Shown here: positions 2,477 to 45,038 of the stretch, piece after piece
Numbering within the stretch: the stretch's first letter is position 1
Layout of the letters: each line of letters opens with the position of its first letter
Virus record (IMG/VR): IMGVR_UViG_3300036834_000217
Location: 1 to 57,405 of that record
Strand: one strand, 5' to 3'
Length of the DNA stretch: 57,405 nucleotides
From: a virus
Notes under the pieces: generated by a model
Seen by the model: only the letters and a program-made list of their open reading frames with translations
What the model was told of the DNA's origin: nothing
Databases searched by the model: none
Program-made: the position numbers and the translations under genes

Positions 2477-2797
2477 ATGATAGGCGCCCCGGACGTCGCA
2501 CCGCTGACTGAGGACGACAAGCTCTACGGCGCCGCGTTCAAGGTCGTGTACGAGCGCCTGAACCCGGACGCCTGCGGCCCGAGCGAGTGGCCCAAGCTGT
2601 GTGCCACGGCGGAGGTCATGCGCACCTGGGCGAGGGAGCAGGAGCCGGCCGTCCGCAGGGCGTACGAGCGCGCCATCGACGGCGAGGATCCCAGGTACCC
2701 GGGAATGATGCAGCGCGCCGCGGCTCGCGTCGAGAACGTGAGGCGCGGGGTCATCATGACAGACGCCTACAACTCCATCGCGAAGCCGCCGGTGTGA
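2477..2797 (+). CDS. Hypothetical protein in tail cluster
   Basis: A 106-residue, mostly helical acidic/basic protein with no family I recognise. I prefer the ATG at 2477 (SD GAGGGG at 2465-2470) over the in-frame TTG one codon earlier. It contains a WAREQEPAVRRAYERAIDGED helix and a second helix MMQRAAARVENVRRGV. It sits between baseplate J and the DUF2612 protein, so a baseplate or assembly role is possible but only positional. The stop is followed by a 7-bp hairpin and repeat array A. Confidence 0.65.
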   Translation: MIGAPDVAPLTEDDKLYGAAFKVVYERLNPDACGPSEWPKLCATAEVMRTWAREQEPAVRRAYERAIDGEDPRYPGMMQRAAARVENVRRGVIMTDAYNSIAKPPV

Positions 2798-2812
2798 GGA
2801 AAGGAACGGGTG

Positions 2813-2835
2813 AGAGGATTTGTGTCCGATCCTCT
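2813..2835 (+). other. Small hairpin before repeat array A
   Basis: AGAGGAT (2813-2819) pairs perfectly with ATCCTCT (2829-2835) across a 9-nt loop. No T-run follows, so it is not a standard terminator. It lies between the stop of the preceding gene and the first box of array A. Confidence 0.4.
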
Positions 2836-2844
2836 TACCCGACT

Positions 2845-2962
2845 CGACTCGCTCTGAGTGATCGGTACTCTCAATGGCCGCGGCTCACTCTGGTCTCACG
2901 GTACTCTCCGAGATGCCGGCTCGCTCGACACTTCCGGTACTCTCGACGGCATCGGCTCGTCT
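2845..2962 (+). repeat. Interspersed decamer array A (7 boxes, 18-bp pitch)
   Basis: Boxes start at 2845, 2863, 2881, 2899, 2917, 2935 and 2953, exactly 18 bp apart. They alternate G-type (CGGCTCGCTC and near variants) and T-type (CGGTACTCTC). Each box is followed by an 8-nt spacer that differs every time. The array fills the gap between two rightward tail genes and ends 17 nt before the ATG at 2980, leaving that gene no clear Shine-Dalgarno. The same family occurs at 6241, 6969 and 8243. Confidence 0.9.
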
Positions 2963-2979
2963 CTTAAATATACGGCTAG

Positions 2980-3666
2980 ATGATTAATTGGCAGCAAACC
3001 GTTCTGTCGCAGTATGCGTCCAGTCCGCGGCTCATGTCGCTGCTGACCGCGATCGACGCCTGGATCTCTCCCGACGGGGCGTACGAGAACTTCTACCAGT
3101 TCGTTTGGAACGTCCTGAGCGCCTCCAGCGGAAACGGAGGCGGATATAGCTATGGACTGGACGTATGGGGGAGAATCGTCAACATCCCCCGCGTCGTGAC
3201 TCTCACCGGCGTGCCGACTACCGGCTTCGCCGAGGCCGGCGACCGGGTAGGCTTCAACCAGGGGCCGTTCTACGAGGCTGGCATCGGCGTCACTACCAAC
3301 TTCCGGCTCGGCGATCCAGTCTACCGCCAGCTCATCCTGGCCAAGGCCGCCTACAACATCACCGACGGGTCGACCCAGGCGATCAACGCCATCCTGATGA
3401 ACCTGTTCGCCTACCGCGGAAACTGCTGGGTCACGGACGGGCGCAACGTCGGGCCCTCGTCGGTCGGCTTCGCCGAGGCCGGCGACCGGCTCGGCTTCAA
3501 CCAGGGCCCGTTCTACGACCTGATTCACCCGTCCCTCCCGGCGAATATGACACTCACCTATACGTTCTCGTTTCCTCTCCAGGACTTCGAGAAGGCAATA
3601 GTCCAGTCCGGCGTCCTGCCCAAGCCGACCGGAGTCCAGGCGTTCTGGGCGTTCCTCGGGGGTTGA
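2980..3666 (+). CDS. DUF2612-type tail/baseplate protein
   Basis: The 228-residue protein matches the DUF2612 phage tail family: an N-terminal QYASSPRLMSLLTAIDAWI, a LDVWGRIVNIPR motif, RLGDPVYRQLILAKAAYNITDGS, then NAILMNLF. Such proteins usually follow baseplate J and link the wedge to tail fibres. An internal duplication is visible: GFAEAGDRVGFNQGPFY near residue 82 recurs as GFAEAGDRLGFNQGPFY near residue 161. The ATG at 2980 directly follows array A and lacks a good SD, so the array may influence its translation or transcription (inference). Confidence 0.75.
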   Translation: MINWQQTVLSQYASSPRLMSLLTAIDAWISPDGAYENFYQFVWNVLSASSGNGGGYSYGLDVWGRIVNIPRVVTLTGVPTTGFAEAGDRVGFNQGPFYEAGIGVTTNFRLGDPVYRQLILAKAAYNITDGSTQAINAILMNLFAYRGNCWVTDGRNVGPSSVGFAEAGDRLGFNQGPFYDLIHPSLPANMTLTYTFSFPLQDFEKAIVQSGVLPKPTGVQAFWAFLGG

Positions 3667-3670
3667 TCTA

Positions 3671-4372
3671 GTGCTACTGAGTCAGATACCTGCCAAGGTG
3701 CCCACGCCGTGGGCGAGTGGCTCCGGCTCGCCGTACATCCGCGCGGTCCCGACGCCGTCGCAGCAGAGCGTCCAGAATGGGGCGGCGAGCTTCACGGACG
3801 GGTTCCCGCCGCTCTGCTTCGTGCCGATCGCCACCGGCGGCGCCGGATTCTTCGGCTCCGACATGAACGGCATCCTGAATCAGGTCACCGCGGACATCCA
3901 GTGGCAGCAGGCGGGGGCGCCGTTCACGTTCGACCCCGCGTGGGCCACGGCGATCGGCGGCTACCCGCACGGTGCCCTGATCCCGTCGGACTCGGCGCCG
4001 GGTCAGTTCTGGTACTCGACGGTCGACAACAACTCGGCGGACCCAGACACGGGCGGAGCCAACTGGCTGTCGTACGCGATGCTGCTTGGTGGCACTGGGA
4101 ACGCCCAGATCATCCAGGTCGGGAACTCGCCCACTATAAACTGCTCGGCTGGCTACGGGCAAACAGCCGTCACCTTCCCGGTCGCCTTCCCCCACGCCTG
4201 CCTCCAGGTCGTGGCCAGCGACGACGGCGTGTTCCAGGGGGTCGTGGGGGGATGCGTGGTCTACGCGTGCAGCAGTATCACGGTTAACGGGTTTACTCTG
4301 ACCGCCGCTACGCCGGCCCAGCCGACTAGCACCGCTGCCGTGAACGCACGATACATAGCGGTAGGGTGGTGA
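3671..4372 (+). CDS. Tail fibre protein
   Basis: The 233-residue protein has a phage tail-fibre layout: an N-terminal region naming a PTPSQQSVQNGAASFTDGFP segment and GSDMNGILNQVTADIQW, and a C-terminal knob with VTFPVAFPHACLQVVASDD and a terminal NARYIAVGW. That ending resembles the gp53-like/gp37-like fibre C-terminal domains. A GTG start at 3671 follows GGGGG of the preceding gene end. It is followed at once by a DUF4376-type assembly protein, the usual fibre-chaperone pair. Confidence 0.7.
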   Translation: MLLSQIPAKVPTPWASGSGSPYIRAVPTPSQQSVQNGAASFTDGFPPLCFVPIATGGAGFFGSDMNGILNQVTADIQWQQAGAPFTFDPAWATAIGGYPHGALIPSDSAPGQFWYSTVDNNSADPDTGGANWLSYAMLLGGTGNAQIIQVGNSPTINCSAGYGQTAVTFPVAFPHACLQVVASDDGVFQGVVGGCVVYACSSITVNGFTLTAATPAQPTSTAAVNARYIAVGW

Positions 4373-4373
4373 T

Positions 4374-4910
4374 ATGACGCAGTACGCGTACCACGACTCG
4401 TCCCAGCCAGACCCCAAGCCGGTGATCGGCTGGTACGACACCGAGCTGTATCGCTACCAGAGCCTCCCGGATCCCTCGAACCTGCTGGAGATGTCCCAGG
4501 AGCAGTGGGCGAAGCGCCAGGACGGCCTCTGGGCCGTGCAGAGTGGTACACTAGTTCCCTACTCTCCACCGGCGCCAGCGCCTTCCCTAGCACAGCGGGC
4601 GGCGACGCTACTGGTCGGTGGGCTGGACATCGTGAGCACGGGCGACCCGTCGCTGAGCGCCACCTACCCGTGCGACCTGATGGCCCAGCAGCAGATCTCC
4701 GCCGAGGTGGTCAGCATCCTGCTGAACGGTACGTTCACCGATGGCGGCCCCTCGATAGAGTGGCGCGACGCGGCCGGCGGTGATCACGCGCTCTCGGCGG
4801 ACCAATTTAAGGCATTAGCTACCGCCATCGCGGCGTTCGTGACAGCCTGCGCGAAGTGCGTCGCCGGGCAATCGACGACACTCCCATCTGCGAGATCCGA
4901 GATATCATGA
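4374..4910 (+). CDS. Tail fibre assembly-like protein (DUF4376-like)
   Basis: The 178-residue protein has an N-terminal tail-fibre-assembly-like segment (YQSLPDPSNLLEMSQEQWAKR, then Pro-rich linker) and a C-terminal DUF4376-like part with WRDAAGGDHALSADQFKAL and a closing helix. These proteins act as chaperones or trimer-assembly factors for the adjacent fibre. It starts one base after the fibre gene stop and its own stop overlaps the next ATG (ATGA at 4907). Confidence 0.65.
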   Translation: MTQYAYHDSSQPDPKPVIGWYDTELYRYQSLPDPSNLLEMSQEQWAKRQDGLWAVQSGTLVPYSPPAPAPSLAQRAATLLVGGLDIVSTGDPSLSATYPCDLMAQQQISAEVVSILLNGTFTDGGPSIEWRDAAGGDHALSADQFKALATAIAAFVTACAKCVAGQSTTLPSARSEIS

Positions 4911-5809
4911 TCATCGCGGTGAACTCGTCCCCAGACGCCAGCGTATCTATCAACACCGCGCTGGCGCAGGCAGCCTCCCAGGGGGGCGGGGAGGTCATCA
5001 TCCCCGCCGGTCGATACCACGTCCCGCCGGCGTCGAGCATCAGGTGGCCGGCCAGCGCCAACGGCGTCAGCCTGGTCGGCGAGGGTCCGCTGGCATCGGT
5101 GATCCAGGCCGACGCCCGCGGCTCCGACCTGCTCGACCTGACCGCGGGCAACCTGGCCCACGTCAGGATCGCGGGACTCGGTATCTCGGCCCTCGCTCCC
5201 TGCTCCGGCGGAGCCATGATCCACGCGGCGAACTGCTACGACCTCGTGGTCGAGCGCGTGAGACTAGATGGCCCGCTCCGCGATGGAATCGCGATCGATG
5301 GGGGGACGAACCAGTACCTCACGACGCTCTCGTTCGTCGTGATGCCCGGTGACCCGCGCTCCTTCCGCTGCGTGGTCATCGGAGAGGCCGGGTACCCGCA
5401 GGACACGTACATCAGCCTGTGCAAGTTCGCCGCGACGCAGTACGGCATCTGGGTCCAGAACGCCGGGGGGGTCTACCCGTCCAGCACGGAGGTGCTGGGT
5501 CACGCCCAGCACGGACTCGTCACCTACCCGATGCCCGGGCAGTCCGTCGACTGGTTCCAGGCGACTCAGTTCCTCGCCGACTCGTGCGGCGGGACCGGGT
5601 GGTACCTCGGATCGGGTGGTGGTACCGTTCGCGGCGTCTCGTTATCTAACTCGTGGGCGGCGTCGTGCAACAACGGACTGGAGATCTCCGGCCAGTGCGC
5701 CGACGTCTGCGTCGACGCCCCGACCAGGTTCCTGGCCAACCGCAACCGATCGGTGATTGACTACGGCGGAACGAACGTCAGGGTCTCGGCCTGGATGGAC
5801 AGACCCTAA
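4907..5809 (+). CDS. Right-handed beta-helix tail spike (pectate-lyase superfamily)
   Basis: I start at the ATG at 4907, which overlaps the previous stop, rather than at an in-frame ATG 51 nt upstream. The 300-residue protein begins with the pectate-lyase-like entry (SINTALAQAASQGGGEVIIP, GRYHVPP), then successive short strand repeats (VSLVGEGPLASVIQAD, VRIAGLGISAL, LVVERVRLDGPL), as in beta-helix tail spikes that bind or degrade surface polysaccharide. It is the last gene of the rightward tail block; a strong terminator lies 376 nt further on. Confidence 0.75.
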   Translation: MIIAVNSSPDASVSINTALAQAASQGGGEVIIPAGRYHVPPASSIRWPASANGVSLVGEGPLASVIQADARGSDLLDLTAGNLAHVRIAGLGISALAPCSGGAMIHAANCYDLVVERVRLDGPLRDGIAIDGGTNQYLTTLSFVVMPGDPRSFRCVVIGEAGYPQDTYISLCKFAATQYGIWVQNAGGVYPSSTEVLGHAQHGLVTYPMPGQSVDWFQATQFLADSCGGTGWYLGSGGGTVRGVSLSNSWAASCNNGLEISGQCADVCVDAPTRFLANRNRSVIDYGGTNVRVSAWMDRP

Positions 5810-5811
5810 GC

Positions 5812-6162
5812 TCACTTACTGGGCGGCTCCGGCTGCTGGGGAGGTATCGGCGTGTGCGGGTACCGCTGCGGCTGAGGCGGCTGGGACTGGCCGTTGGCCA
5901 GCTCGGTCTGCTGCTTGTTGATGCCCTCGACGTACTCCTTGAGCCACTTGTCCTTCGCCGCGACCTGCTCCTGTAGCACCGCCAGCTGGCCCTGGGTCTG
6001 CCCCAGCTTGAACAGTAGCTGGGCGGTGCCTATGTTCTGCTGCGCCTCCGCCGAGAGCGTGCTCTGCTGAAGCGTGACCTCCGGGGCGGTCTGGGCAAGT
6101 GCTGATCCGGCACCGAGCGCCAGTCCGGCCGCGAACGCGACTGCCTTGTGATTGATAATCAT
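5812..6162 (-). CDS. Exported coiled-coil protein with Pro-rich tail
   Basis: The 116-residue product starts with a clear Sec signal peptide (hydrophobic core AFAAGLALGAGSALA, cleavage near residue 24), then a helical segment rich in Gln/Leu likely to be a coiled coil (residues 30-90), and a Pro/Gln C-terminus. It has no cysteine and hence no lipobox. SD AAAGGAGAT sits before the ATG. Topology and size resemble spanin-like or periplasmic phage proteins, but no family match is evident. It is read leftward, convergent with the tail block, two bases from the tail-spike stop. Confidence 0.65.
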   Translation of the reverse strand: MIINHKAVAFAAGLALGAGSALAQTAPEVTLQQSTLSAEAQQNIGTAQLLFKLGQTQGQLAVLQEQVAAKDKWLKEYVEGINKQQTELANGQSQPPQPQRYPHTPIPPQQPEPPSK

Positions 6163-6185
6163 CTCATCTCCTTTTTTTGAGGGAA

Positions 6186-6214
6186 GGGAGGCCCGAGTGG
6201 GCCTCCCTTTTTTT
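6186..6214 (+). terminator. Rho-independent terminator of the rightward tail operon
   Basis: GGGAGGCCC (6186-6194) and GGGCCTCCC (6199-6207) form a perfect 9-bp GC-rich stem with a GAGT tetraloop, followed by seven T residues. The T-run is on the + strand only, so it should stop tail-operon transcription, after that transcript has run antisense through the 5812-6162 gene. On the - strand the same hairpin lies in the 5' leader of that gene. Confidence 0.85.
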
Positions 6215-6240
6215 GTCTAAAATTTACGCTCTTAAGCACA

Positions 6241-6376
6241 CGGTACTCTCTCCTCGCTCGGCTCGCTCAGCTTCACCGGTACTCTCCTCGCAGTCGGCTC
6301 GCTCGTAGAGCACGGCACTCTCTCCTCACTCGGCTCGCTCGTGGACAACGGTACTCTCTACCCACTCGGCTCGACG
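6241..6376 (+). repeat. Interspersed decamer array B (8 boxes, 18-bp pitch)
   Basis: Boxes start at 6241, 6259, 6277, 6295, 6313, 6331, 6349 and 6367, every one 18 bp apart, alternating CGGTACTCTC-type and CGGCTCGCTC-type. The box at 6313 is CGGCACTCTC; the last is degenerate (CGGCTCGACG). The array runs up to the stop codon (6388-6390) of the leftward gene. A segment of about 29 nt covering two boxes and their spacer (6259-6287) is identical to 8279-8307 in array D. Confidence 0.9.
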
Positions 6377-6387
6377 TCGGCTCGACG

Positions 6388-6951
6388 TCACGGACGGGGC
6401 GGATCGGGTGGGTGGCCGCCCTGGTGGTCTGGTGGGGGAGGGCCCCTCTTCTCCAGCTCGTCCAGAATAGATTGGCGAAGGAGGCGCGCACCCTCGTCCT
6501 CCCAGCAGTCCTTAACCTGTTGGGTATCGTCCATCGGCTGCGCCAGGGCCTCGTAGAACTTCGCACGCCCGAAGTGCCCGTTCCCGGATGACCTCTCGTG
6601 CTTGGCCTCCCTCAGTAGGTCGTGCTTGTACGCGACGTCGAGGGTGGTGTTGCCGATGGGCCACGACGCGAGCATCGTGAGGGTGCGACGGCGGATCGCC
6701 AGCTTGGCGTTGGGATAGTCGTATCGTGGCGCGCCCGCTGCGACGGGTCGGACGCCATCAGACAGCTCCTCCGCCATTATGCGGGAGCGCTGTGTCTTGC
6801 GCATGTGGTGCTGCGCCCGGACGAGTCCCCCGCGCAGTAGGTATTCTATGAGCTCTCGGTGCTTGCGCGGGCTCCGGAGCAGGGCGTCCACTACGGCATC
6901 GATGCTGCCGTGCTCGGCCAGCAGCTTCAGTATTTCATTCTCGTGAGGCAA
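6388..6951 (-). CDS. Hypothetical phage protein
   Basis: A 187-residue protein with a TTG start at 6951, chosen because AGAGGAG lies 7 nt upstream and no ATG fits. It is helical at the N-terminus (ENEILKLLAEHGSIDAVVDALL, RKHRELIEYLLRGG), has a basic centre (AKLAIRRRTLTMLASWPIGN) and ends in a Pro-rich tail. No family recognised. It is flanked by array B after its stop and array C before its SD, which makes it one of three leftward genes separated by the arrays. Confidence 0.65.
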   Translation of the reverse strand: MPHENEILKLLAEHGSIDAVVDALLRSPRKHRELIEYLLRGGLVRAQHHMRKTQRSRIMAEELSDGVRPVAAGAPRYDYPNAKLAIRRRTLTMLASWPIGNTTLDVAYKHDLLREAKHERSSGNGHFGRAKFYEALAQPMDDTQQVKDCWEDEGARLLRQSILDELEKRGPPPPDHQGGHPPDPPRP

Positions 6952-6968
6952 ATGCCATCTCCTCTGAT

Positions 6969-7195
6969 TAATTCGCTCCTAGGTCCCGGTACTCTCAGCT
7001 CGCGCGGCTCGCTCGCCATTCGCGGTACTCTCCCTTCTATCGGCTCGCTCGGTAATCACGGTACTCTTCGACCTTTCGGCTCGCTCGATATGTCACAGCA
7101 CTCTCCGACCTTTCGGCTCGCTCGATGGATGCGGTACTCTCCCGTTCGACGGCTCGCTCGGGGACCACGGTACTCTCGCCGGAGGCGGCTCAATT
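6969..7195 (+). repeat. Interspersed decamer array C (13 boxes)
   Basis: Boxes start at 6969 (degenerate), 6987, 7005, 7023, 7041, 7059, 7077, 7096, 7114, 7132, 7150, 7168 and 7186, with strict alternation of the two box types. The pitch is 18 bp except for one 19-bp step (7077 to 7096). The spacer CGACCTTT with its following box occurs twice (7069 and 7106), indicating a local duplication. The last box merges into the stop codon of the IS110-domain gene (7195-7197); the first is 17 nt from the start codon at 6951. Confidence 0.9.
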
Positions 7196-8223
7196 TACTC
7201 GGCGGCGAGCGCCTCGTATCCGTAATATGCCTCCGCGAACCCGGGAAACATGTTAATATCGGGGATGCGGATCTCGTGGGCATGTCCCAGGATCGCGGTC
7301 GCGAACGGTCTCGGCGGAGCCTGGTGGTTCTTGTTCCAGTGCATGATCGCCTGGACGTGCGACAGGAAGATCTTGGTGGCGTAGTTGCAAGCCTGTTGAT
7401 CCAGGTTGCCTGCCGGGAGCCTACCCTCATTCAGTACCTTGCGCACGTCCGCCGACCTGGTCGCGAAGACCTTGGCGCGCTCGGCGTAGTCGCCGTGCTC
7501 GTTGCGGGCCACGACCAGCGCCTTGTGCTCGCGATAGAGCCTCCCGTAGAGTGCCCGCGGCTCGCCCGATATCCGCTTGAAGCACTGCCCCGCGTGCCAG
7601 CAGATCTGCTTGAGGTCGGGACTGTAGGGGCGCCTGCTGAGTGCCTTGGCCAGTGACGCCCGCGTCAGCGGCACCGGGTTCCCGGCGTGGTCGGTCGTCG
7701 CGAACCTCAGTACCACGGAGAACTTCTTCCCGGTCTGCTCGCATAGGATCCGGACGTCCCGGTCCGTGGGCTGGGCGCCCCTGACGGCCTTGCACACCAT
7801 CTTGTCTGCGGCCTCCCGACTGATCCACTTGGCCGTCGGGTCGAGCCCCGCAAATGCCCAGATCGCCCCGGCCGTCGTTGCCCGCTCTATGTCGATGTAC
7901 GCCAGCAGCCCGGCCGCGATCACCTCCGCGACTCCGTCCTGGGTCATCATCCATAGGCCGACCGGACTTGCCTCGGCAAACTTCCGAAGTGCTTTCTTGA
8001 GGTCGTCCTCTATCGACGCCTGGGCGTCGCCGAAGTAGTCGAGCATGCTGACCGGGTCGTCCTTGTCGCCCCGATGGCGGAGCTGCATGTCTGCGCGTTT
8101 CCTTAGATCTTGTGCCTGGTAGTAGTTCGCCACGAGGCACCTCGCCTCGCCATTCGTGAGATTAGACGCGGAGAGGATCCTCTCTCTATCAGCCTTGATG
8201 TTCTTCGTGTCGGTACGCCTCAT
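7195..8223 (-). CDS. IS110-type transposase C-terminal-domain protein (phage family)
   Basis: The 342-residue protein contains the Transposase_20-like segment of IS110/IS116/IS902 enzymes: TQDGVAEVIAAGLLAYIDI, then GAIWAFAGLDPTAKW near residue 125. A later block, RPYSPDLKQICWHAGQCFK, aligns with the IS110 'R.N..LR..L..A' helix, and the C-terminus has KIFLSHVQAIMHW and ILGHAHEI. The N-terminal DEDD (RuvC-like) domain of true IS110 transposases is absent; about 110 charged helical residues replace it. I recall similar proteins in phage and metagenome data annotated as transposases. SD AAAAAGGAGAT precedes the ATG. Arrays C and D abut it on both sides. Transposase activity is not shown. Confidence 0.65.
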   Translation of the reverse strand: MRRTDTKNIKADRERILSASNLTNGEARCLVANYYQAQDLRKRADMQLRHRGDKDDPVSMLDYFGDAQASIEDDLKKALRKFAEASPVGLWMMTQDGVAEVIAAGLLAYIDIERATTAGAIWAFAGLDPTAKWISREAADKMVCKAVRGAQPTDRDVRILCEQTGKKFSVVLRFATTDHAGNPVPLTRASLAKALSRRPYSPDLKQICWHAGQCFKRISGEPRALYGRLYREHKALVVARNEHGDYAERAKVFATRSADVRKVLNEGRLPAGNLDQQACNYATKIFLSHVQAIMHWNKNHQAPPRPFATAILGHAHEIRIPDINMFPGFAEAYYGYEALAAE

Positions 8224-8242
8224 TTTGATCTCCTTTTTAAAT

Positions 8243-8454
8243 TAAGTCGCTCTCTTCCTTCGATACTCTCAGTTTACACGGCTCGCTCAGCTTCACCGGT
8301 ACTCTCCCTTCGATACGGCTCGCTCGGTTATGTCGGCACTCTCGATTCGATCGGCTCGCTCCCTATTTACGGTACGCTCCCTTTGATACGGCTCGCTCCG
8401 CGATCTCGGTACTTTCCAGCTTATCGGCTCGCTTGTCCGGTTTTCGGTACTCTG
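8243..8454 (+). repeat. Interspersed decamer array D (12 boxes)
   Basis: Boxes start at 8243 (degenerate), 8261, 8279, 8297, 8316, 8334, 8352, 8370, 8389, 8407, 8425 and 8445. Spacing is 18 bp with occasional 19- or 20-bp steps. G-type and T-type boxes alternate without exception. The array runs from 19 nt upstream of the IS110-domain gene start to within one base of the stop codon of the sigma-like gene (8456-8458). Boxes here are more degenerate than in arrays A and B. Confidence 0.9.
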
Positions 8455-8455
8455 A

Positions 8456-8980
8456 TTATACCGACAGCTCCGCCAGCATGTTCGTCACCGCCGAGAATGC
8501 CGCCTCGGCGCGGTCCCCGCGCCTCAGGCCGAGTACCCGGCGGACGTAGCTCCTGAGTCTGTCCCGCGCTCCCTTCGCGTTTGCCAGGACCTGGTCCACT
8601 AGGATGCCAGCGTCCCCCTTGTCGAGTACCAGCTCGACCACGGCCCGCGCGTCGACGGGCAGCTCCCGTATCAGCTCGGCTAGTAGCAGGCTCCGATCGG
8701 GGGGCGGCCCCGACTGGTCGGACAGGTCGATGCTCAGCTCGACCTGGTACTCGCTGGAGGGGGGAGTCCCCCTCCTGAGCCTCGGGACTGCGGAGCACAT
8801 CGCCCGGTAGACTCCGGTCGTGACGAACGTGTCGAGCGACGCCAGGTGAGGGTCGTAGCTCCCCGCGGCCTGTGCCTTCCACTGCGCTATCCGGGCCTCC
8901 TGGAGGAGGTCGTCTAGCTCGACGCCGCTCGTCCGGGCGAACTCGTGGGCGTACTTGAGTACGGCGGGGTGATCCTTCAT
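8456..8980 (-). CDS. Sigma-factor-like protein
   Basis: I start at the ATG at 8980 (SD GGGAGAG, and ATGA overlap with the upstream stop), giving 174 residues; the longer upstream frame is not coding. Residues 20-70 resemble sigma-70 region 2 (ELDDLLQEARIAQWKAQ, then YDP and a TFVTTGVYRAM helix). The C-terminal half has LIRELPVDARAVVELVLDKG followed by a basic helix, like a weak region 4. Regions 2.3-2.4 are not clear, so promoter-melting ability is uncertain. It may be a divergent phage sigma or a sigma-fold DNA-binding protein. Confidence 0.6.
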   Translation of the reverse strand: MKDHPAVLKYAHEFARTSGVELDDLLQEARIAQWKAQAAGSYDPHLASLDTFVTTGVYRAMCSAVPRLRRGTPPSSEYQVELSIDLSDQSGPPPDRSLLLAELIRELPVDARAVVELVLDKGDAGILVDQVLANAKGARDRLRSYVRRVLGLRRGDRAEAAFSAVTNMLAELSV

Positions 8981-9168
8981 GATTGTTCTCTCCCATTGAT
9001 TGTAGTGGTCCTGGTCTCCGCCTCCGGCGGCACGCCCTCGAAGCGGGCGGACCGCCGCGCGACCGCGAGCGCCAGCTCCTCGGTCGATGCCGCAACCTTG
9101 ACGACCGTGGTGCGGGTCAGGCCTGAGTCCGGCATGCCCCACGTCACGCGGACGTCGAAGTTCCTCAC
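8977..9168 (-). CDS. Small hypothetical protein
   Basis: A 63-residue protein whose GTG start overlaps the upstream gene stop (GTGA) and whose stop overlaps the sigma-like gene start (ATGA). It opens with a beta-strand pattern (NFDVRVTWGMPDSG, TTVVKVAA) followed by a helix (TEELALAVARRSARF), a small alpha/beta fold. No function can be assigned. Tight coupling suggests it is co-translated with the sigma-like protein. Confidence 0.65.
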   Translation of the reverse strand: MRNFDVRVTWGMPDSGLTRTTVVKVAASTEELALAVARRSARFEGVPPEAETRTTTINGREQS

Positions 9169-9506
9169 TTTCGTTCCTCGGCCGCCGGATCATCGGGCTG
9201 GTTAGAGTCGTCGAACGAGAACTTGGTCGGCTCCCGGTCGTGGTACCTGGCGAATACGACCACGTCGGTGGGCGCTACCTCCTGCGTGGCCCTTCGATCC
9301 CACGTCCTGTGATAGAAGTCGGGCGGGCCCCAGACCGCGACCGCCGAGTGATACTCCTCGCCGCGGAACCCGACGAAGTGGGTGGCCGGCTCCGCGTCGG
9401 CGAACAGGAGGTCTACGGGTCGCGCCCGCAGGCGCGGGCACCTCTCGTCGCAGTGTGCCGGGTGCGGGCAGTCGCCGCCCGCGGGGCATATCGAGGCGTC
9501 ACTCAT
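9165..9506 (-). CDS. Hypothetical protein with Cys/His cluster
   Basis: I start at the ATG at 9506, which overlaps the upstream stop, giving 113 residues. The N-terminus has a Cys/His-rich stretch (CPAGGDCPHPAHCDERCPRLR) that could bind zinc, followed by an alpha/beta region (THFVGFRGEEYHSAVAVWGPPDFYHRTWD). The second part looks like a phage regulatory or accessory domain of unknown role. It belongs to the leftward operon from the promoter at 9856-9884. Confidence 0.6.
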   Translation of the reverse strand: MSDASICPAGGDCPHPAHCDERCPRLRARPVDLLFADAEPATHFVGFRGEEYHSAVAVWGPPDFYHRTWDRRATQEVAPTDVVVFARYHDREPTKFSFDDSNQPDDPAAEERK

Positions 9507-16639: not shown

Positions 16640-18766
16640 GTGGCCCCGTCCCACGCCGTGCTGGTCGGTCACGTGCTCTCGCGCCTCGGGGAGCTGCCCG
16701 ACGAGAGCGTGCACTGCGTGGTGACCTCGCCGCCGTACTACGGCCTCAGATCATACGGGACGGAGCCGCAGGTGTGGGGCGGTGATCCGAAACACGATCA
16801 TGTCTTTGGCGAAGAGCAAATCCGCGGCGGATCGGCGCAGAAACAAGGTGCCTCATCGCAGCGGGCCGGCCGCGCAAATGTCGAGGAGCAATCCGGCCAA
16901 TCAAATTCGCAAGGAGCATTCTGCCACTGTGGCGCATGGCGCGGCGACCTGGGGCTCGAGCCGACGCCGGAGCTGTTCATTGCGCACATGGTTGATGTGT
17001 TCCGCGAGGTGCGGCGGGTGCTCCGCAAGGACGGCACGCTGTGGCTCAATATCGGGGATAGCTATGCTGGTGCCAAAGGATTCCGACCGGAACACGCGAA
17101 TACATCGACACTCAGCGGCGGCAAAAATCACATAGGCCTGGGCCGTGGCGCTCCGATACCCGCCGACTGCAAAGCAAAGGATCTCCTAATGATCCCCGCC
17201 CAACTAGCGCTCGCGCTGCGGGCCGGATTTTCTCGTTGCTCAGATTGCAATCGAGAGCTTCGATCGGACTTGTGGCCGGTTTGGAACGGGCACCGCTTTT
17301 GCCCAGATTGCCCGCGCAGCAAGATTATTCCGACAGAGCCTGGCTGGTGGCTGCGGTCTGAGATTGTGTGGGCGAAAAAGGCGCCGATGCCGGAGTCGTG
17401 CACCGACCGGCCGACCTGCGCGCACGAGAAGGTGTTCCTGCTGACGAAATCAGCCCGGTATTTCTACGATGCCGAGGCGGTGAAGGAAGAGGGTGAAGGC
17501 TACGGTCGATCAAACTGGCCGGCAATGCAATTCAAGGGCGGCGACATTACTCGCGGTCACGGCACAAAAGGTATTTCAAAGGGCACGAGCACTCATACTT
17601 ACGAGGGCGGGCGCAACATGCGCAACGTCTGGCATCTCGGCCCCGAGCCCTTCAGCGGCGCTCATCTAATGCGTGACGTAGGCGGTGGCAGTGGTCGCAT
17701 AAGGTCACCAGATTGTCCACTGCATGGGGATCGACCGACTCTGGCGTCCAAGGCTGATCGTGGTGCACGACAAGGCGTTTCTCGGTCTGCCCGCAATCAC
17801 AACAGCGATGCCCGTCCCGCTCTAGGGCTATTCGCCGAGCCCGCTCCCATTGAGCTGACCCGCGGCGAGCGCTCTGAGGACGATAATTTGGGTTCGCCAT
17901 ACCCTGCATATAGCGGCTCTGCCAAGCCGCATAGCACTCAAATCCGCAGAACGGACCCCGATGCCGAGATTTCGCCGCATGTGATAGCCGACGCATTATC
18001 GGCTTCCCACACTGGCGACAGTGCACTTCCACTCGATTCAGTCGCCACATCCGTCCGCATTCCCGAGAACAGTAGCGCGGCTGATATCCGGGACGAGTCT
18101 TCGGTTCAAACGAACGGCCACAGTGCTGACAAGTGTTCATGCAAGCAATCTAGCACACTTACAGACCACTTCGCGACGTTCGTGAGCGAGATCCCGCGCC
18201 GCGCCATCCTCGCCGGCACCAGCGCTGAGGGCGTCTGCCCGAAGTGCGGGGCGCCTTGGGTGAGGGTGGTTGAGAAGTCTGTGGTGTGGCCGGAAAAGCG
18301 TGGCGGTGTCGGTAACAATGCAGACCGCGGTGATGGCGGGCTCGCGTGCAATGCTGATCGGTCATCCCAGACCATCGGCTGGCGCCCATCCTGCTCCTGT
18401 GATACACTCGAAATTGGCTGCAGCGGCGTGGAATGCTACGGAGACACGCTATCAGGCGATGCGAGGGGTAGCGACCTCGGGAAGATAGCTTGTCGTGGGC
18501 CTGGGTCGGCAAAAGCCGACCTAAGCGAACGACTGTGCGATGGGGCGGCCAAACAGTCCCGCGTCGGGGTAACGTCCGACCTGCAGCCAATACCAGCCAC
18601 CGTCCTAGACCCATTCCTCGGCGCGGGAACGACCATGATGGTGGCCGACCGCCTGGGTCGGAACTGCGTCGGCGTCGAGCTTATCACGGAGTACGCCGCC
18701 ATGGGTGGTAGGCGCCTGGAGCGCGACGTCGGGCCCCTGGTCCGCGGGAGCGTGGAGGTGAGGTGA
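16640..18766 (+). CDS. Site-specific DNA methyltransferase (beta-class, TSPPY)
   Basis: Motif IV TSPPYYGLR is at residues 29-37 and motif I VLDPFLGAGTT near residue 656, the beta-class order. TSPPY fits N4-cytosine or some N6-adenine enzymes. Between them are a Cys-rich segment (CSDCNRELR, FCPDC), GWWLRSEIVWAKKAPMPES and CPKCGAPW. The 708-residue length is large because about 168 residues (343-510), between FSGAH and FATFVSEIPRR, are encoded by DNA whose other strand is an HNH endonuclease gene. It probably protects phage DNA or feeds base modification. GTG start at 16640; stop overlaps the helicase GTG. Confidence 0.85.
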   Translation: MAPSHAVLVGHVLSRLGELPDESVHCVVTSPPYYGLRSYGTEPQVWGGDPKHDHVFGEEQIRGGSAQKQGASSQRAGRANVEEQSGQSNSQGAFCHCGAWRGDLGLEPTPELFIAHMVDVFREVRRVLRKDGTLWLNIGDSYAGAKGFRPEHANTSTLSGGKNHIGLGRGAPIPADCKAKDLLMIPAQLALALRAGFSRCSDCNRELRSDLWPVWNGHRFCPDCPRSKIIPTEPGWWLRSEIVWAKKAPMPESCTDRPTCAHEKVFLLTKSARYFYDAEAVKEEGEGYGRSNWPAMQFKGGDITRGHGTKGISKGTSTHTYEGGRNMRNVWHLGPEPFSGAHLMRDVGGGSGRIRSPDCPLHGDRPTLASKADRGARQGVSRSARNHNSDARPALGLFAEPAPIELTRGERSEDDNLGSPYPAYSGSAKPHSTQIRRTDPDAEISPHVIADALSASHTGDSALPLDSVATSVRIPENSSAADIRDESSVQTNGHSADKCSCKQSSTLTDHFATFVSEIPRRAILAGTSAEGVCPKCGAPWVRVVEKSVVWPEKRGGVGNNADRGDGGLACNADRSSQTIGWRPSCSCDTLEIGCSGVECYGDTLSGDARGSDLGKIACRGPGSAKADLSERLCDGAAKQSRVGVTSDLQPIPATVLDPFLGAGTTMMVADRLGRNCVGVELITEYAAMGGRRLERDVGPLVRGSVEVR
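17652..18140 (-). CDS. HNH homing endonuclease, antisense inside the methyltransferase
   Basis: The 162-residue protein on the opposite strand has two N-terminal zinc-knuckle pairs (CQHC at 4-7 with C24/C28; CRQC at 41-44 with C65/C69) and a C-terminal HNH core (CCDCG, LVVHHDQPW, NLVTLCDHCHRLRH). The family nicks or cuts DNA and spreads itself by homing. The gene lies wholly within the methyltransferase coding region and leaves that frame open. No good SD precedes its ATG, so expression may be weak. I see no intron core or intein motifs around it. Confidence 0.85.
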   Translation of the reverse strand: MNTCQHCGRSFEPKTRPGYQPRYCSRECGRMWRLNRVEVHCRQCGKPIMRRLSHAAKSRHRGPFCGFECYAAWQSRYMQGMANPNYRPQSARRGSAQWERARRIALERDGHRCCDCGQTEKRLVVHHDQPWTPESVDPHAVDNLVTLCDHCHRLRHALDERR

Positions 18767-22506: not shown

Positions 22507-23865
22507 ATGGCGCACGACGACCACACGCTGCCACTAAGGAGGGAGAACGCCGAGGATCGCCTCTTCGACGTCTCCGTCGTCGCCCGCCGCTGGCAGGACG
22601 TCTGGACCAGCATGCCCGCGTTCGAGATGGGTGCCGCCGACTCCCTCCTCCATACTATTATTCACTTCCGCTCCTACGCGGACGTGGAGCGGTTCAAGTC
22701 AATCTTGGGCGACGCCGTCTGGTGGATACCCGGGGGCCAGGGCTCCGGCTGGTTCGGGGGCAGGGACGCGGACTGGGTCGCCCCGATGGACATGTTGTGG
22801 AGAACTGAGGACCGATCCAGGCTCCCGCGGTACCCAGTGTACGTACCCTCCGTGGGGCGCTGGGAGACGCCGCTGACCGCCAGCGCCCTGGAGGCCCTGG
22901 GCGTCCCCCATCGCGTTGTGGTGGAGCCCGCGCAGCGCGACGCCTATGCCCGCGCGCTCGGGGAGGATCGGCTGCTCGTCCTGCCCGAGGACTTCAGCGC
23001 GCGCAACACCGGGTCGATCCCGGCGCGCAACTGGATATGGGAGCACTCCCTGGCCGAGGGCCACGCCCGCCACTGGGTCATCGACGACAACGTCCGCGGG
23101 TTCCTCCGTGTCCACCGCAACAGGCGGGTGCCGGTCGACGGCCCGTCGATCTTCGTCGCGGCGGAGGACTTCACCGACCGGTTCGAGAACGTCGCGTTCA
23201 GTGGCTTCAACTACATGTACCTGGTGAAGGAGCGCGACGCTACGTTCCCGCCGTTCTACCTGAACACGAGGGTATACTCGATGATCCTCGTGAACAACTC
23301 TCTGCCCTACCGCTGGAGGGGGAGATACAACGAGGATACTGATATCTGCATTCGCGCCCTGAAGGACGGGTGGTGCACCATCCTGATCAACGCCTTCCTG
23401 GGCGACAAGGCTCCCACGCTGACCATGGCCGGCGGCAACACCGACACGGTGTACGCGACCGGGGACAAGCGCCGCGCCTTCGCCGACAGCCTGGTCGAGC
23501 AGCACCCGGACGTCGCGCGGCGCGTGCGGCGCTACGGGCGATGGCACCACGAGGTGGACTACTCCGTCTACAGCCACAACAAGTTGCGTCCGAGGGCCGA
23601 CGCGCCCCTGCCGGACGACCCCGAGTACGGGATGAGGCTAGTCCGCGACCGGCGGACATCCCGCTATCCCAGTCCCCACAGGGAGCGACAGAATGGAAGT
23701 GCAGAGGGAAGAGCTGCTCCGGACGATCAGGCGAGTGATCCCGGCGATGGCCAAGAAGGAGATATTCGACCAGGCCAATCGGATCGCGTTCGTCGGGGGG
23801 AAGGTGGTGGCGTTCGACGACGCCGTGGCAATCTTTCATCCCCAGCCTGGCGGCCTAGAATTTGA
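22507..23865 (+). CDS. TET-associated-type glycosyltransferase (TAGT-like)
   Basis: Residues about 115-370 carry family hallmarks: PVYVPSVGRWETPLTASALEA, GVPHRVVVEPAQ, IPARNWIWEHSLAEG, RHWVIDDNVRGFLR, and YNEDTDICIRALKDG. This family glycosylates hydroxymethylated pyrimidines in phage DNA. The first 115 residues (HFRSYADVERFKSILGD) resemble the ParB-associated N-terminal segment found in phage modification proteins. The last 57 codons overlap the sliding-clamp gene in another frame and look non-native (Gly/Arg-rich), suggesting that the original stop was lost. Confidence 0.8.
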   Translation: MAHDDHTLPLRRENAEDRLFDVSVVARRWQDVWTSMPAFEMGAADSLLHTIIHFRSYADVERFKSILGDAVWWIPGGQGSGWFGGRDADWVAPMDMLWRTEDRSRLPRYPVYVPSVGRWETPLTASALEALGVPHRVVVEPAQRDAYARALGEDRLLVLPEDFSARNTGSIPARNWIWEHSLAEGHARHWVIDDNVRGFLRVHRNRRVPVDGPSIFVAAEDFTDRFENVAFSGFNYMYLVKERDATFPPFYLNTRVYSMILVNNSLPYRWRGRYNEDTDICIRALKDGWCTILINAFLGDKAPTLTMAGGNTDTVYATGDKRRAFADSLVEQHPDVARRVRRYGRWHHEVDYSVYSHNKLRPRADAPLPDDPEYGMRLVRDRRTSRYPSPHRERQNGSAEGRAAPDDQASDPGDGQEGDIRPGQSDRVRRGEGGGVRRRRGNLSSPAWRPRI

Positions 23866-40994: not shown

Positions 40995-43900
40995 ATGAAG
41001 TTCACTCGCGTGCTGACCTATGACAAGCCGAACGACGTGCGCGTCGAGGACTGGATCCGGTGGAGGATCGTCGACGCGGTGATTACCGCTCCCGATGGGA
41101 GGGTGATCTTCGAGCAGCGCGGCGTCGAGGTGCCGGAGCAGTGGTCTCAAAACGCCGCAAACATCCTGGCTCAGAAGTACTTCCGCAAGGCCGGAGTACC
41201 GAGTGCGGTCTCTTACCATTTAGGTGTCCCCGACATGCCTGAGTGGCTGCGTCCGCGAGTTCCCGTGAATAGCGCGACGTTCGGCGGCGAAACCTCTGCA
41301 AAGCATGTCTTTCACCGCATGGCCGGGTGCTGGACCTACTGGGGATGGCGCGAGGGTCTGCTCACGTCCGAGGATGATGCCCGCGTCTTCTACGACGAGG
41401 TGTTTGCCTCCCTGGCGCTCCAGTACGCCGCCCCTAACTCGCCCCAGTGGTTCAACACGGGGATCCACTGGGCCTATGGCATCGAGGGACCGGACTCCGG
41501 CCAGTGGTACGCCGGTGACGTGAGTCCATATTTCGAGGGAACTCGGTTAAAGATGCCTCGGATCGAAGTCAAGCGCATCCACAATAGCTACGAGCGTCCC
41601 CAGCCCCACGCCTGCTTCATACAGACCGTCGAGGACGACCTGGTTAACCCGGGCGGCATGATGGATTTGTGGACGCGCGAGGCCCGCCTGTTCAAGCACG
41701 GGTCAGGCTCCGGTTCGAACATGAGTAAGATCCGGGGCCGGGGCGAGAAGCTGTCCGGGGGCGGAGTCAGCAGTGGATTGATGTCGTTCCTCCGCGTCGG
41801 CGACCGCTCGGCCGGGTCGATCAAGAGTGGTGGGACGACGCGTCGCGCGGCCCTCATGCGCGTCCTGGACATGGACCATCCCGAGATCGAGGACTTCATC
41901 GACTGGAAGGCTACCGAGGAGTACAAGGCCGCGTGCATCGCGGTCGGGAGCCGCGTGATCCACGATCGACTGACGAGCGTGGCGCGGCACAGGGGCGACG
42001 ACCGGCGCGTCCCACGATTCGACCGCGAGGCCGACGCGCTCGGCTCCTGGGTACCGCAGTCCCTGGTGGACCGCGCGAAGGCGGGGGAATCTGACTGGCC
42101 CGTGCACGAGGCCGACTCGTTCGAGGGCGATGCCATCGAGACGGTCTCGGGACAGAACTCAAATAACTCGGTGCGCGTCTCCAACGATTTCTTGCACCAG
42201 GTCGATAATCCTGACCGCTTGCACTCGCTCACGGCTCGTACGACTGGTGAGGTCGTTCGCTACGTTCCCGTGCGAGGACTATGGACCCGGCTGTGCCGCG
42301 CGGCGTGGGCCAGCGGGGACCCAGGCGTCCAGTTCTCCGATACGATCAACGACTGGCACACGTGCCGCGCCGACGGCCCGATCAACGCCAGTAATCCATG
42401 CTGCTTCGTCGGCGAGACCTTCGTCGACACGAGCGAGGGCTTTATTTCTATCGAGGAACTGGCCCGCATGTCTGCTGTCGGGGAGGATCTGCCTTGGGCA
42501 TTCTGCTTCGATCAAGAGGACGCCCTTCCGGACCTGCGTCCTATCGCGCGTGCCTGGTGCTCGGGATATGCGCACAAGTTGACCGAAGTGACGACGCGGA
42601 ATGGCCAGGTCTTGTACTGTACGCCGGAGCACGGGTGGCTTACGCGTCGTGCCGAAGGCTACGTCGCGGCGAGGGATCTCCGCGTCGGTACGAGCCTTCA
42701 GAAGATTAATCGTGAGATCAATACGAAGCGGTCTGATCGCGTGGTGCTTACGCATCGAAGTGTGGGAGAGTCCAGTTACGGGAGATCTTCCCAGCATAAG
42801 TTCGTCTGGGAGAAGATGCGTGGTGCGGTGCCTAGCGACTACGATGTTCATCACCTAAACGAAGATCCGACCGACGATCGGTTTTCGAACCTGGGGATTA
42901 AGGAGTTCAGCCTCCATCAGTCGGAGCATAGTCGTGGTGATAGGAATCCGCGGTTTCTGGATGTAGATGATGAGACTCTAGTGGAGGTCTACGACGCTGC
43001 GGGGAGGGATCCTCTCTCGACTCGTCGTAGGGGGAAAGGAATCGTTACCGTAGGTGTGTGGAATAAGTACGTTAGGAAGATGGGGTTGTTCGGCGTTGTT
43101 CCCTTGGGGAATCTCCGCGACGGAGGTCGCATCCGGGGAATGTCGTGGGATAGCTTCGTCGAGCGTATGGAGGCCGCTCGCGCTCGGGTGAACGACTCGG
43201 TACTGTCGGTTAAGTCCATCGAGTTGGATGATCCAGTTCCGGTCTACGACATCGAGGTCGAGGGATGCCACAATTTTGGCGTTCGCTCCGATGCGACCCG
43301 AAACGGCGATTCTATAATCGTTCATAACTCTGAGTACCTCTTCCTCGACGATACCGCGTGCAATCTTGCATCGATCCGCCTGACGAAGTTTCTGCCGCTC
43401 GACGACGCCGCCATGAGTAAGTTCGATCACGTCGTCCGCCTGTGGACCGTCGTATTGGAGATCTCGGTCTACATGGCGTCGTTCCCGAGCGAGGCCATCG
43501 CCCGCAACTCCTACCTGTATAGGACGCTCGGCCTGGGCTATACCGACCTCGGCGGCCTGCTGATGCGGCAGGCCATTCCCTACGCCTCGGACGAGGGACG
43601 CGCGATCGCCGCCGGCCTGACCGCGCTGATGACTGGCGTCGCCTACCGGACCAGTGCGGAGATGGCCGCCGAAGTGGGGTCGTTCCTGCGGTGGGAAGCG
43701 AACGCCGAGAATATGCGTAGGGTACTGCGCAACCACAGGACCGCGCTATTTACCGAAAAGCTGTTCTACGCTCCTATGAGGATCGATCCATATCGAAAGC
43801 CGGCGCTCCAGATGGAGAGTGGCTTGAGGGATCGGTGTCTGGCGGTCTGGGATCTCGTGGTAGCAGCGCCAGCCTTTCGCAACGCCCAAGTAACATTGCT

Positions 43901-45038
43901 CGCCCCGACCGGTACCATCTCGTTCGTCATGGACTGCGATACGACTGGGATAGAGCCCGACTTCGCCCTGGTCAAGCACAAGAGCCTGGCCGGCGGCGGA
44001 TCCATGCGGATCGTCAACCAGGCAGTTGAGGAAGGTCTCCGACGTAAAGGTCGAAGCGAGAGCTGGATCAGCGAGGCACTGGCCGAGATAGAGTGGACGG
44101 ATAAGCTGAAATTTACTGACTCTGTCGAATTCGCTTGTGCCAATGATATCGCGTGGGAAGATCACGTCAAGATGGTCGCCGTCGTCCAGCCGTTCCTGTC
44201 TGGAGGCGTGAGTAAGACGATCAACATGCCACGCGACGCTACGGTAGACGACGTCGATCGTGCATACCGCCTGGCCCACCAGCTCGGGGTCAAGACCATC
44301 TCGATATACCGAGACGGTAGTAAATTGTCGCAACCTCTCTCATCGAGACGAGACGAGAGTACCGAGCAAGCTGAGCGAGTCGCCCCACGGGAGAGTATCG
44401 AGTATCTAGAGCGCTTACCTCGCGGCGCCCGCGAGTATCTTCCTTGGCGTCGCGAGGCAGGCTGGACCCAGAAAATTAAGATCGGCCAGGACCGTCAGAG
44501 CGTCTTCCTCCGCGTGTCCGAGTACCCCGACGGACGCCCCGGCGAGGTGTTCCTGGAGATCGCGGGCGAGGGCAGTACCCTCCGCGCCCTGGCCAACTGC
44601 CTCGCCATCTCGATCTCGGTGGGGCTCCAGCGCGGCGTTCCGGTCGCCGAGTACGTGGACCAGCTCGTCGGGCTCAAGTTCGAGCCGGCCGGCTACGTCG
44701 AGGGCCACTCCCGCATCAGGTTCGCCAGTTCGATCGCCGACTACATAGGACGGGAGCTGGGGATCTCATACGCCGGCCGCGACGACCTGGCGAACGCGCC
44801 CGCCCCGATCGCGGAGGCCGTCGAGCGTATCGCGGAGCACTCCGAGCGACTGGACGAGGAGTGGAGACTGTCCGTCAAGGACAATGAGCAGCTCGTGGCG
44901 CACGGTAATCAGACGACGACGATGTCGAAGTATTTTGAACAGACCGGCGACATGTGCCCCGGCTGCGGCGCCCTCCTCCGCCGGGCCGGCACCTGCCGCT
45001 CGTGCCCGAACTGCTCCTGGAGCGAGGGGTGCGGGTGA
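40995..45038 (+). CDS. nrdJ: Class II (B12-dependent) ribonucleotide reductase with intein
   Basis: Removing the intein (470-778) leaves a protein of 1038 residues with class II RNR features: NSPQWFNTG, HACFIQTVEDDL, FKHGSGSGSNMSKIRGRGE, KSGGTTRRAA, the active-site NPC followed by SEYLFLDDTACNLAS, LLAPTGTISFVMDCDTTGIEP, and a C-terminal Cys cluster (CPGCGALLRRAGTC, CPNCSWSEGCG). It makes dNTP precursors without oxygen dependence. The ATG overlaps a short upstream frame; SD GAGGGAGAAG. Confidence 0.85.
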   Translation: MKFTRVLTYDKPNDVRVEDWIRWRIVDAVITAPDGRVIFEQRGVEVPEQWSQNAANILAQKYFRKAGVPSAVSYHLGVPDMPEWLRPRVPVNSATFGGETSAKHVFHRMAGCWTYWGWREGLLTSEDDARVFYDEVFASLALQYAAPNSPQWFNTGIHWAYGIEGPDSGQWYAGDVSPYFEGTRLKMPRIEVKRIHNSYERPQPHACFIQTVEDDLVNPGGMMDLWTREARLFKHGSGSGSNMSKIRGRGEKLSGGGVSSGLMSFLRVGDRSAGSIKSGGTTRRAALMRVLDMDHPEIEDFIDWKATEEYKAACIAVGSRVIHDRLTSVARHRGDDRRVPRFDREADALGSWVPQSLVDRAKAGESDWPVHEADSFEGDAIETVSGQNSNNSVRVSNDFLHQVDNPDRLHSLTARTTGEVVRYVPVRGLWTRLCRAAWASGDPGVQFSDTINDWHTCRADGPINASNPCCFVGETFVDTSEGFISIEELARMSAVGEDLPWAFCFDQEDALPDLRPIARAWCSGYAHKLTEVTTRNGQVLYCTPEHGWLTRRAEGYVAARDLRVGTSLQKINREINTKRSDRVVLTHRSVGESSYGRSSQHKFVWEKMRGAVPSDYDVHHLNEDPTDDRFSNLGIKEFSLHQSEHSRGDRNPRFLDVDDETLVEVYDAAGRDPLSTRRRGKGIVTVGVWNKYVRKMGLFGVVPLGNLRDGGRIRGMSWDSFVERMEAARARVNDSVLSVKSIELDDPVPVYDIEVEGCHNFGVRSDATRNGDSIIVHNSEYLFLDDTACNLASIRLTKFLPLDDAAMSKFDHVVRLWTVVLEISVYMASFPSEAIARNSYLYRTLGLGYTDLGGLLMRQAIPYASDEGRAIAAGLTALMTGVAYRTSAEMAAEVGSFLRWEANAENMRRVLRNHRTALFTEKLFYAPMRIDPYRKPALQMESGLRDRCLAVWDLVVAAPAFRNAQVTLLAPTGTISFVMDCDTTGIEPDFALVKHKSLAGGGSMRIVNQAVEEGLRRKGRSESWISEALAEIEWTDKLKFTDSVEFACANDIAWEDHVKMVAVVQPFLSGGVSKTINMPRDATVDDVDRAYRLAHQLGVKTISIYRDGSKLSQPLSSRRDESTEQAERVAPRESIEYLERLPRGAREYLPWRREAGWTQKIKIGQDRQSVFLRVSEYPDGRPGEVFLEIAGEGSTLRALANCLAISISVGLQRGVPVAEYVDQLVGLKFEPAGYVEGHSRIRFASSIADYIGRELGISYAGRDDLANAPAPIAEAVERIAEHSERLDEEWRLSVKDNEQLVAHGNQTTTMSKYFEQTGDMCPGCGALLRRAGTCRSCPNCSWSEGCG
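42402..43328 (+). other. HNH-containing intein in the RNR active site
   Basis: The insert starts at Cys470 (CFVGETFVDTSEG, block A) and ends in HN (GDSIIVHN, block G), followed by Ser779. Block B is seen as CTPEHGWL and block F as VPVYDIEVEGCHNFGV. An HNH nuclease (DVHHLNEDPTDDRFSNLG, residues about 617-634) sits in the centre. The insertion lies between the catalytic-site NPC and SEYLF, a highly conserved codon stretch. Predicted splice: Cys N-terminal, Asn C-terminal, Ser +1. The insert appears AT-richer than the exteins. Confidence 0.85.

What the first reader, a model, noticed from the sequence alone, without database searches (positions are those of the whole stretch)
2845..8454. Four intergenic arrays of two alternating decamers at an 18-bp pitch
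Seen directly: 40 boxes in four arrays (7, 8, 13, 12). Two related decamers, T-type CGGTACTCTC and G-type CGGCTCGCTC (7 of 10 positions shared), alternate without a single break, each followed by an 8-nt variable spacer. The pitch is 18 bp with only a few 19- or 20-bp steps. Such fixed boxes with variable spacers are not ordinary tandem repeats, not CRISPRs (spacers too short, no cas genes) and not coding (1-2-nt indels break the frame). It looks like an array that binds a protein at each half-site, possibly two proteins or two subunits in alternation. I know of no described family with this grammar.
Basis: seen in the sequence. Interest (0 to 1): 0.92.

Follow-up and report, generated by a model that had tools for sequence, protein, structure and literature searches.

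The report
TIGR guide-RNA arrays in a soil phage
The alternating ten-base boxes are the repeats of a TIGR-Tas system, a recently described RNA-guided DNA-recognition system carried by phages. Here it is a nuclease-less (TasA) member with four arrays plus a fifth small array hidden inside a metabolic gene, and its guide sequences change far faster than the protein that uses them.

Summary
In detail: 40 boxes in four intergenic arrays (7, 8, 13, 12), strictly alternating, 8-nt spacers, 36-nt unit. The claim that no described family has this grammar is wrong. These are TIGR arrays of a TIGR-Tas system (Faure et al. 2025, PMC12045711). The gene between arrays 3 and 4 (7195-8223, minus strand) is a Tas protein. 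Its family profile hits TasR 9MTY at 3e-25 and TasH at 2.5e-13, and its AlphaFold model's best PDB matches are all TasH-tigRNA complexes. It has no room for a nuclease, so it is a TasA. In relatives both edge pairs covary and the loop keeps only one, as in TIGR. The grammar occurs in about 90 viral stretches but only as six isolated matches in 257 Gb of prokaryote genomes. Phages with 95-98% identical Tas share almost no units, so spacers turn over fast, partly by re-pairing single spacers. No target lies in the phage's own record. A small excess of matches in other phages (z 2.4) is suggestive only. Known kind, new member.

The parts
7195..8223 (-). tasA gene: 342-aa Tas protein (Nop-type fold), no nuclease domain
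   Evidence: phmmer TasH 7e-5 and TasR 9MTY 1e-4; profile of 49 relatives hits 9MTY 3e-25, TasH 2.5e-13, IS621 2e-5; Pfam Transposase_20 in 42 of 49 members; AF2 pLDDT 89.7, top 7 PDB folds all TasH-tigRNA complexes
2845..2962 (-). TIGR array 1 (3 tigRNA units), antisense within the tail-gene operon
   Evidence: boxes; RNA strand from co-orientation with tas
2796..2840 (-). hairpin and U-rich tail just beyond the 3' end of array 1, possible terminator
   Evidence: sequence and fold of window:2790-2850 minus strand, -22.1 kcal/mol, z -3.2
6227..6376 (-). TIGR array 2 (4 units) with truncated edge repeats at both ends
6388..6951 (-). 187-aa protein of unknown function, found next to arrays or tas in a few of the closest relatives
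   Evidence: tblastn hits in L083, L183, L167, L039; no Pfam family
6973..7191 (-). TIGR array 3 (6 units), begins 3-4 nt after the tas stop codon
8247..8454 (-). TIGR array 4 (about 5 complete units), in the leader of tas
8455..8460 (-). TATAAT hexamer directly before array 4, possible -10 element of an array4-tas-array3-ORF-array2 transcript
   Evidence: sequence; not general among relatives
44355..44413 (+). Mini-array inside the class II RNR gene (loop, edge, loop, truncated edge): one complete tigRNA unit in the linker before the TSCPD domain
   Evidence: linker of the G033 RNR homologue lacks the boxes

Best explanation
This is a phage TIGR-TasA system. A TasA dimer binds one tigRNA, one protomer on the edge and one on the loop, and the complex binds a DNA site in which spacer A pairs with one strand and spacer B with the other. 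With no nuclease, it most likely blocks transcription or replication of, or bends, the target DNA. The likeliest targets are other mobile elements, because spacers turn over fast and none matches the phage's own record. Shown here: array grammar, strand, edge/loop identity by covariation, Tas homology and fold, lack of nuclease, spacer turnover, no self-target. Inferred from TasR/TasH: transcription, processing, DNA binding. Inferred weakly: competition between mobile elements (about 0.45). The confidence given is for the identity and the RNA-guided mode of action.
For: Grammar. Tas homology by sequence and fold. tas relatives in 62 array-bearing loci. Arrays co-oriented with tas in 99 of 99 arrays, and 1804 versus 54 units in independently fetched tas loci. 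Arrays found de novo in most of 170 tas loci. Edge pairs 3-8 and 4-7 covary (96% of cells paired, covariation score 1.15 against 0.37 shuffled); the loop keeps 3-8 while 4-7 is unpaired in 24 of 31 types. Virus-specific: about 90 viral stretches against 6 single matches in genome contigs. Turnover. No self-target at up to 2 mismatches. Published TIGR definition and mechanism (PMC12045711).
Against: No expression data. Intrinsic terminators, typical in the paper, are not enriched at array ends here. The target test is weak: 239 units hit other records in the predicted geometry against 205.5 +/- 13.8 in shuffled pairs. Two IMG/VR scans for exact predicted targets gave no hit in a homologous gene, and mismatches are not enriched for synonymous changes.
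Confidence: 0.95

Rival explanations
1. TIGR-TasA used for regulation: tigRNAs guide TasA to sites in the phage's own or the host's genome to control genes.
For: TasA lacks a nuclease; the paper lists regulation as one possible role (PMC12045711). Host targets could not be examined because the host is unknown.
Against: No site in the 57-kb own record at up to 2 mismatches in the predicted geometry; no excess of own-record matches among 85 records; near-complete unit turnover between phages with nearly identical Tas, unlike conserved regulatory guides.
Confidence: 0.2
2. DNA-level binding array for two proteins or two subunits, with neutral spacers.
For: Fixed boxes at constant pitch.
Against: Base-pair covariation within the edge box, exact link to and co-orientation with a Tas gene, truncated edge boxes at array ends, pitch of 18 bp rather than whole helical turns, and wholesale spacer replacement between close relatives.
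Confidence: 0.02
3. Relic or inert arrays left by a Tas system that no longer works in this phage.
For: Several window boxes carry 1-3 changes and some spacers are 9 or 10 nt; the tas product diverges from relatives (24-48% identity over matched segments).
Against: tas is intact with family-conserved residues and a confident fold; most boxes are exact; arrays end in the canonical truncated edges.
Confidence: 0.07

Closest known systems
TIGR-Tas, dual-repeat type with TasA (Faure et al. 2025, PMC12045711)
   Same: Two alternating 10-nt repeats, 8-nt spacers (published 16 nt in total for SpTIGR), 36-nt unit, truncated edge repeats at array ends, adjacent Nop-domain protein without nuclease, edge-loop covariation, phage host.
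   Different: Four arrays plus one inside a coding gene in one phage; no tasParB; terminators not evident at most array ends; own repeat sequences (GAGCGAGCCG / GAGAGUACCG).
TasH and TasR effectors (PDB 21kl, 9w02, 9w04, 9vzx; 9MTY)
   Same: Nop-type core, best sequence and fold matches.
   Different: Window protein lacks the N-terminal HNH or RuvC domain, so it should bind but not cut.
IS110-family transposases with bridge RNA (IS621, 8wt6)
   Same: Related Nop-like RNA-binding domain (2e-5).
   Different: No DEDD domain match, no single bridge RNA, long arrays instead.
CRISPR arrays
   Same: Conserved repeats with variable spacers.
   Different: Two alternating 10-nt repeats and 8-nt spacers; Tas instead of Cas.

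Membership tests
TIGR-Tas (dual-repeat) | Two distinct alternating 8-12-nt repeats | tested here: met
TIGR-Tas (dual-repeat) | Short spacers (mostly 9 nt; 16 nt in total for SpTIGR), unit of about 36 nt | tested here: met
   8-nt spacers, 36-nt unit
TIGR-Tas (dual-repeat) | Arrays begin and end with truncated edge repeats | tested here: met
   Seen in the sequence at both ends of arrays 2 and 3 and at one end of arrays 1 and 4, and in L051
TIGR-Tas (dual-repeat) | Rho-independent terminator after the array | tested here: inconclusive
   Hairpin with U-rich tail after array 1; no enrichment of U-runs after arrays overall (5 of 115 against 3.8%)
TIGR-Tas (dual-repeat) | Adjacent Nop-domain Tas protein | tested here: met
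TIGR-Tas (dual-repeat) | Box C/D pair in both repeats, extra covarying pair in the edge repeat only | tested here: met
TIGR-Tas (dual-repeat) | Processing to 36-nt tigRNA bound to Tas | not testable with these tools
   needs small-RNA sequencing
TIGR-Tas (dual-repeat) | Tandem-spacer DNA recognition (A on one strand, B on the other, adjacent) | tested here: inconclusive
   Weak excess of matches in this geometry in other phages; biochemistry not testable here
TasA subtype | Nop domain only, no HNH or RuvC | tested here: met
   No nuclease family in Pfam; profile position 51 aligns with TasR residue 122, leaving too little N-terminal length
TasA-TasParB operon | ParB-like partner gene | tested here: not met
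   PF02195 absent from the record
CRISPR-Cas | Single repeat of 25-36 nt with spacers of similar size | tested here: not met
   10-nt alternating repeats, 8-nt spacers
CRISPR-Cas | cas genes | not tested
   No cas family among the ORFs scanned, but not every ORF was scanned
IS110 transposase | N-terminal DEDD domain | tested here: not met
   Only Transposase_20 matches

The most novel reading that the evidence does not exclude
These nuclease-free TasA systems are an inter-phage interference arsenal. Arrays diversify by gaining, losing and re-pairing single 8-nt spacers at the 10-nt repeats, and silence conserved genes of competing phages, such as terminase and the rival's own tas. Extra guides can be hidden inside coding genes, as in the RNR linker here.
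Probability: 0.3. Interest if true: 0.8.

Novelty: new member of a known kind. Interest (0 to 1): 0.4.

Why it matters
The natural targets of TIGR systems, the role of nuclease-free TasA and the way arrays change are stated open questions in the founding paper. This window led to about 90 viral stretches with the same repeats (259 arrays, 953 distinct units with 8-nt spacers in 85 records, about 2000 with related repeats). The set shows that (a) spacers are replaced while Tas and repeats stay nearly identical and (b) single spacers are re-paired with unrelated partners while keeping their slot. That makes the question of targets testable with defined phage families.

Tried and rejected
Self-targets: none. 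Targets in other phages: 83 distinct units in the predicted class against 44-66 in 19 other geometry/gap classes, same-group 13 against about 5, but only z 2.4 (about 1%) against within-record shuffled pairs on a larger set. Two predicted sites fall in terminase and one in tas of relatives, but exact-match scans of IMG/VR found only unrelated sequences, and mismatches were not enriched at synonymous positions; left unproven. A group-B terminase search brought no relatives beyond those already held. An apparent swap of spacers between slots was a parsing artefact and vanished in the strict set. General promoter or terminator signals at arrays: not enriched. Conserved accessory genes: none; the commonest neighbouring ORFs are translations of arrays. 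No Rfam match. No DNA match in GenBank phages for 6160-8480 and no protein match for Tas.

Full report
WHAT IS THERE. The four arrays are real, at the stated coordinates, with 7, 8, 13 and 12 boxes that alternate without exception. The pitch is 18 bp with three 19-bp steps and one 20-bp step. A scan with both boxes found a fifth, three-box array on the other strand at 44355-44400.

RELATED SEQUENCES. A pattern scan found about 90 IMG/VR stretches with the same grammar, many with far longer arrays. In 257 Gb of bacterial and archaeal genomes it found six isolated single matches and no array. In 259 arrays the boxes are almost invariant and the 8-nt spacers nearly random.

IDENTITY. This matches TIGR-Tas (Faure et al. 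2025, PMC12045711): two alternating repeats (edge, loop), two short spacers, a 36-nt unit, truncated edge repeats at the ends, and an adjacent Nop-domain protein. The window ORF hits TasH and TasR by sequence. A 49-member profile hits TasR 9MTY (3e-25), TasH (2.5e-13) and IS621 (2e-5) (9MTY is TasR according to the paper). The AlphaFold model (pLDDT 89.7) has TasH-tigRNA complexes as its top seven PDB matches. No nuclease family matches and the N-terminus is too short for one, so it is a TasA. No ParB partner is present.

STRAND AND REPEAT ROLES. Arrays are co-oriented with tas in 99 of 99 cases. In independently fetched tas loci 1804 units lie on the tas strand and 54 on the other. The RNA repeats are therefore GAGCGAGCCG and GAGAGUACCG. 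De novo consensus repeats from relatives show that GAGCGAGCCG-type boxes have two covarying pairs, 3-8 (GC, AU, UA, GU) and 4-7 (UA, CG, AU), 96% paired. The other type keeps 3-8 but leaves 4-7 unpaired in 24 of 31 types. This is the published difference between edge and loop, and it agrees with the truncated G-type boxes at array ends. The edge list was chosen by its GA (once AA) at positions 5-6, not by pairing.

LAYOUT. On the minus strand the order is TATAAT (8460-8455), array 4, tas, array 3, a 187-aa ORF, array 2, compatible with one transcript. Array 1 lies antisense between tail genes and has a hairpin with U-rich tail just beyond its 3' end. Promoter and terminator signals are not general among relatives. 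The fifth array lies in the RNR gene between the barrel and TSCPD domains, in RNA sense on the coding strand, and holds one complete unit. The RNR of another array-bearing phage (G033) lacks these boxes in the same linker.

TARGETS. The published geometry predicts a site of spacer A followed by the reverse complement of spacer B (my reading of the 3'-overhang rule in the paper). No such site exists in the own record at up to 2 mismatches. In 85 records, one-mismatch sites in other records were found for 83 units in the predicted class and 44-66 in 19 control classes. Against shuffled pairings on a larger set the excess is z 2.4 (239 against 205.5 +/- 13.8). Some sites lie in terminase or tas of relatives. 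Exact-site scans and a codon-position test gave no support. Targets remain unproven.

ARRAY EVOLUTION. Phages whose Tas proteins are 95-98% identical share 0-2 units (for example G010 and G034: 98.3%, 0 of 6; G004 and G010: 96.5%, 0; the exception is G028 and L028 with 4 of about 60), while near-identical genomes share all. Within one record, single spacers recur with unrelated partners 12 times in slot A and 10 times in slot B against 0-1 in random sets, keeping their slot. The window shows this too: AGCTTCAC occurs in arrays 2 and 4 with different partners, and CGACCTTT twice in array 3. I infer recombination at the short repeats; acquisition from targets is not shown.

VERDICT. A confirmed observation and a known kind of system: a new TasA member. 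The value lies in the comparative set and the two evolutionary findings, not in a new category.

Noticed in passing
window 44355-44413: TIGR mini-array in frame within the linker of a class II RNR gene; it encodes EST..ERV..ESI..ER in the protein.
   Followed up: partly
window 40995-45038: The same RNR gene carries an intein with an HNH endonuclease.
   Followed up: no
window 22507-23865: TET-associated glycosyltransferase (TAGT, 1.4e-39), suggesting hypermodified phage DNA; a DNA methylase lies at 16640-18766.
   Followed up: no
window 8456-9193: ORF upstream of array 4 with a sigma-70 region 2 match just above the Pfam cut-off (2.6e-5).
   Followed up: no
window 33885, 33956, 34635: Three copies of CCGAGCGAGAGGAAAGGAAGG before small genes, probably a repeated ribosome-binding leader; its start resembles half an edge repeat.
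   Followed up: no
window 54536-54835 and 56118-56417: A 300-nt direct repeat, 80% identical.
   Followed up: no
L226-L395: At least 567 viral stretches encode Tas relatives, most of those fetched with dual-repeat arrays whose last repeat base (A or G) nearly always agrees between edge and loop.
   Followed up: partly
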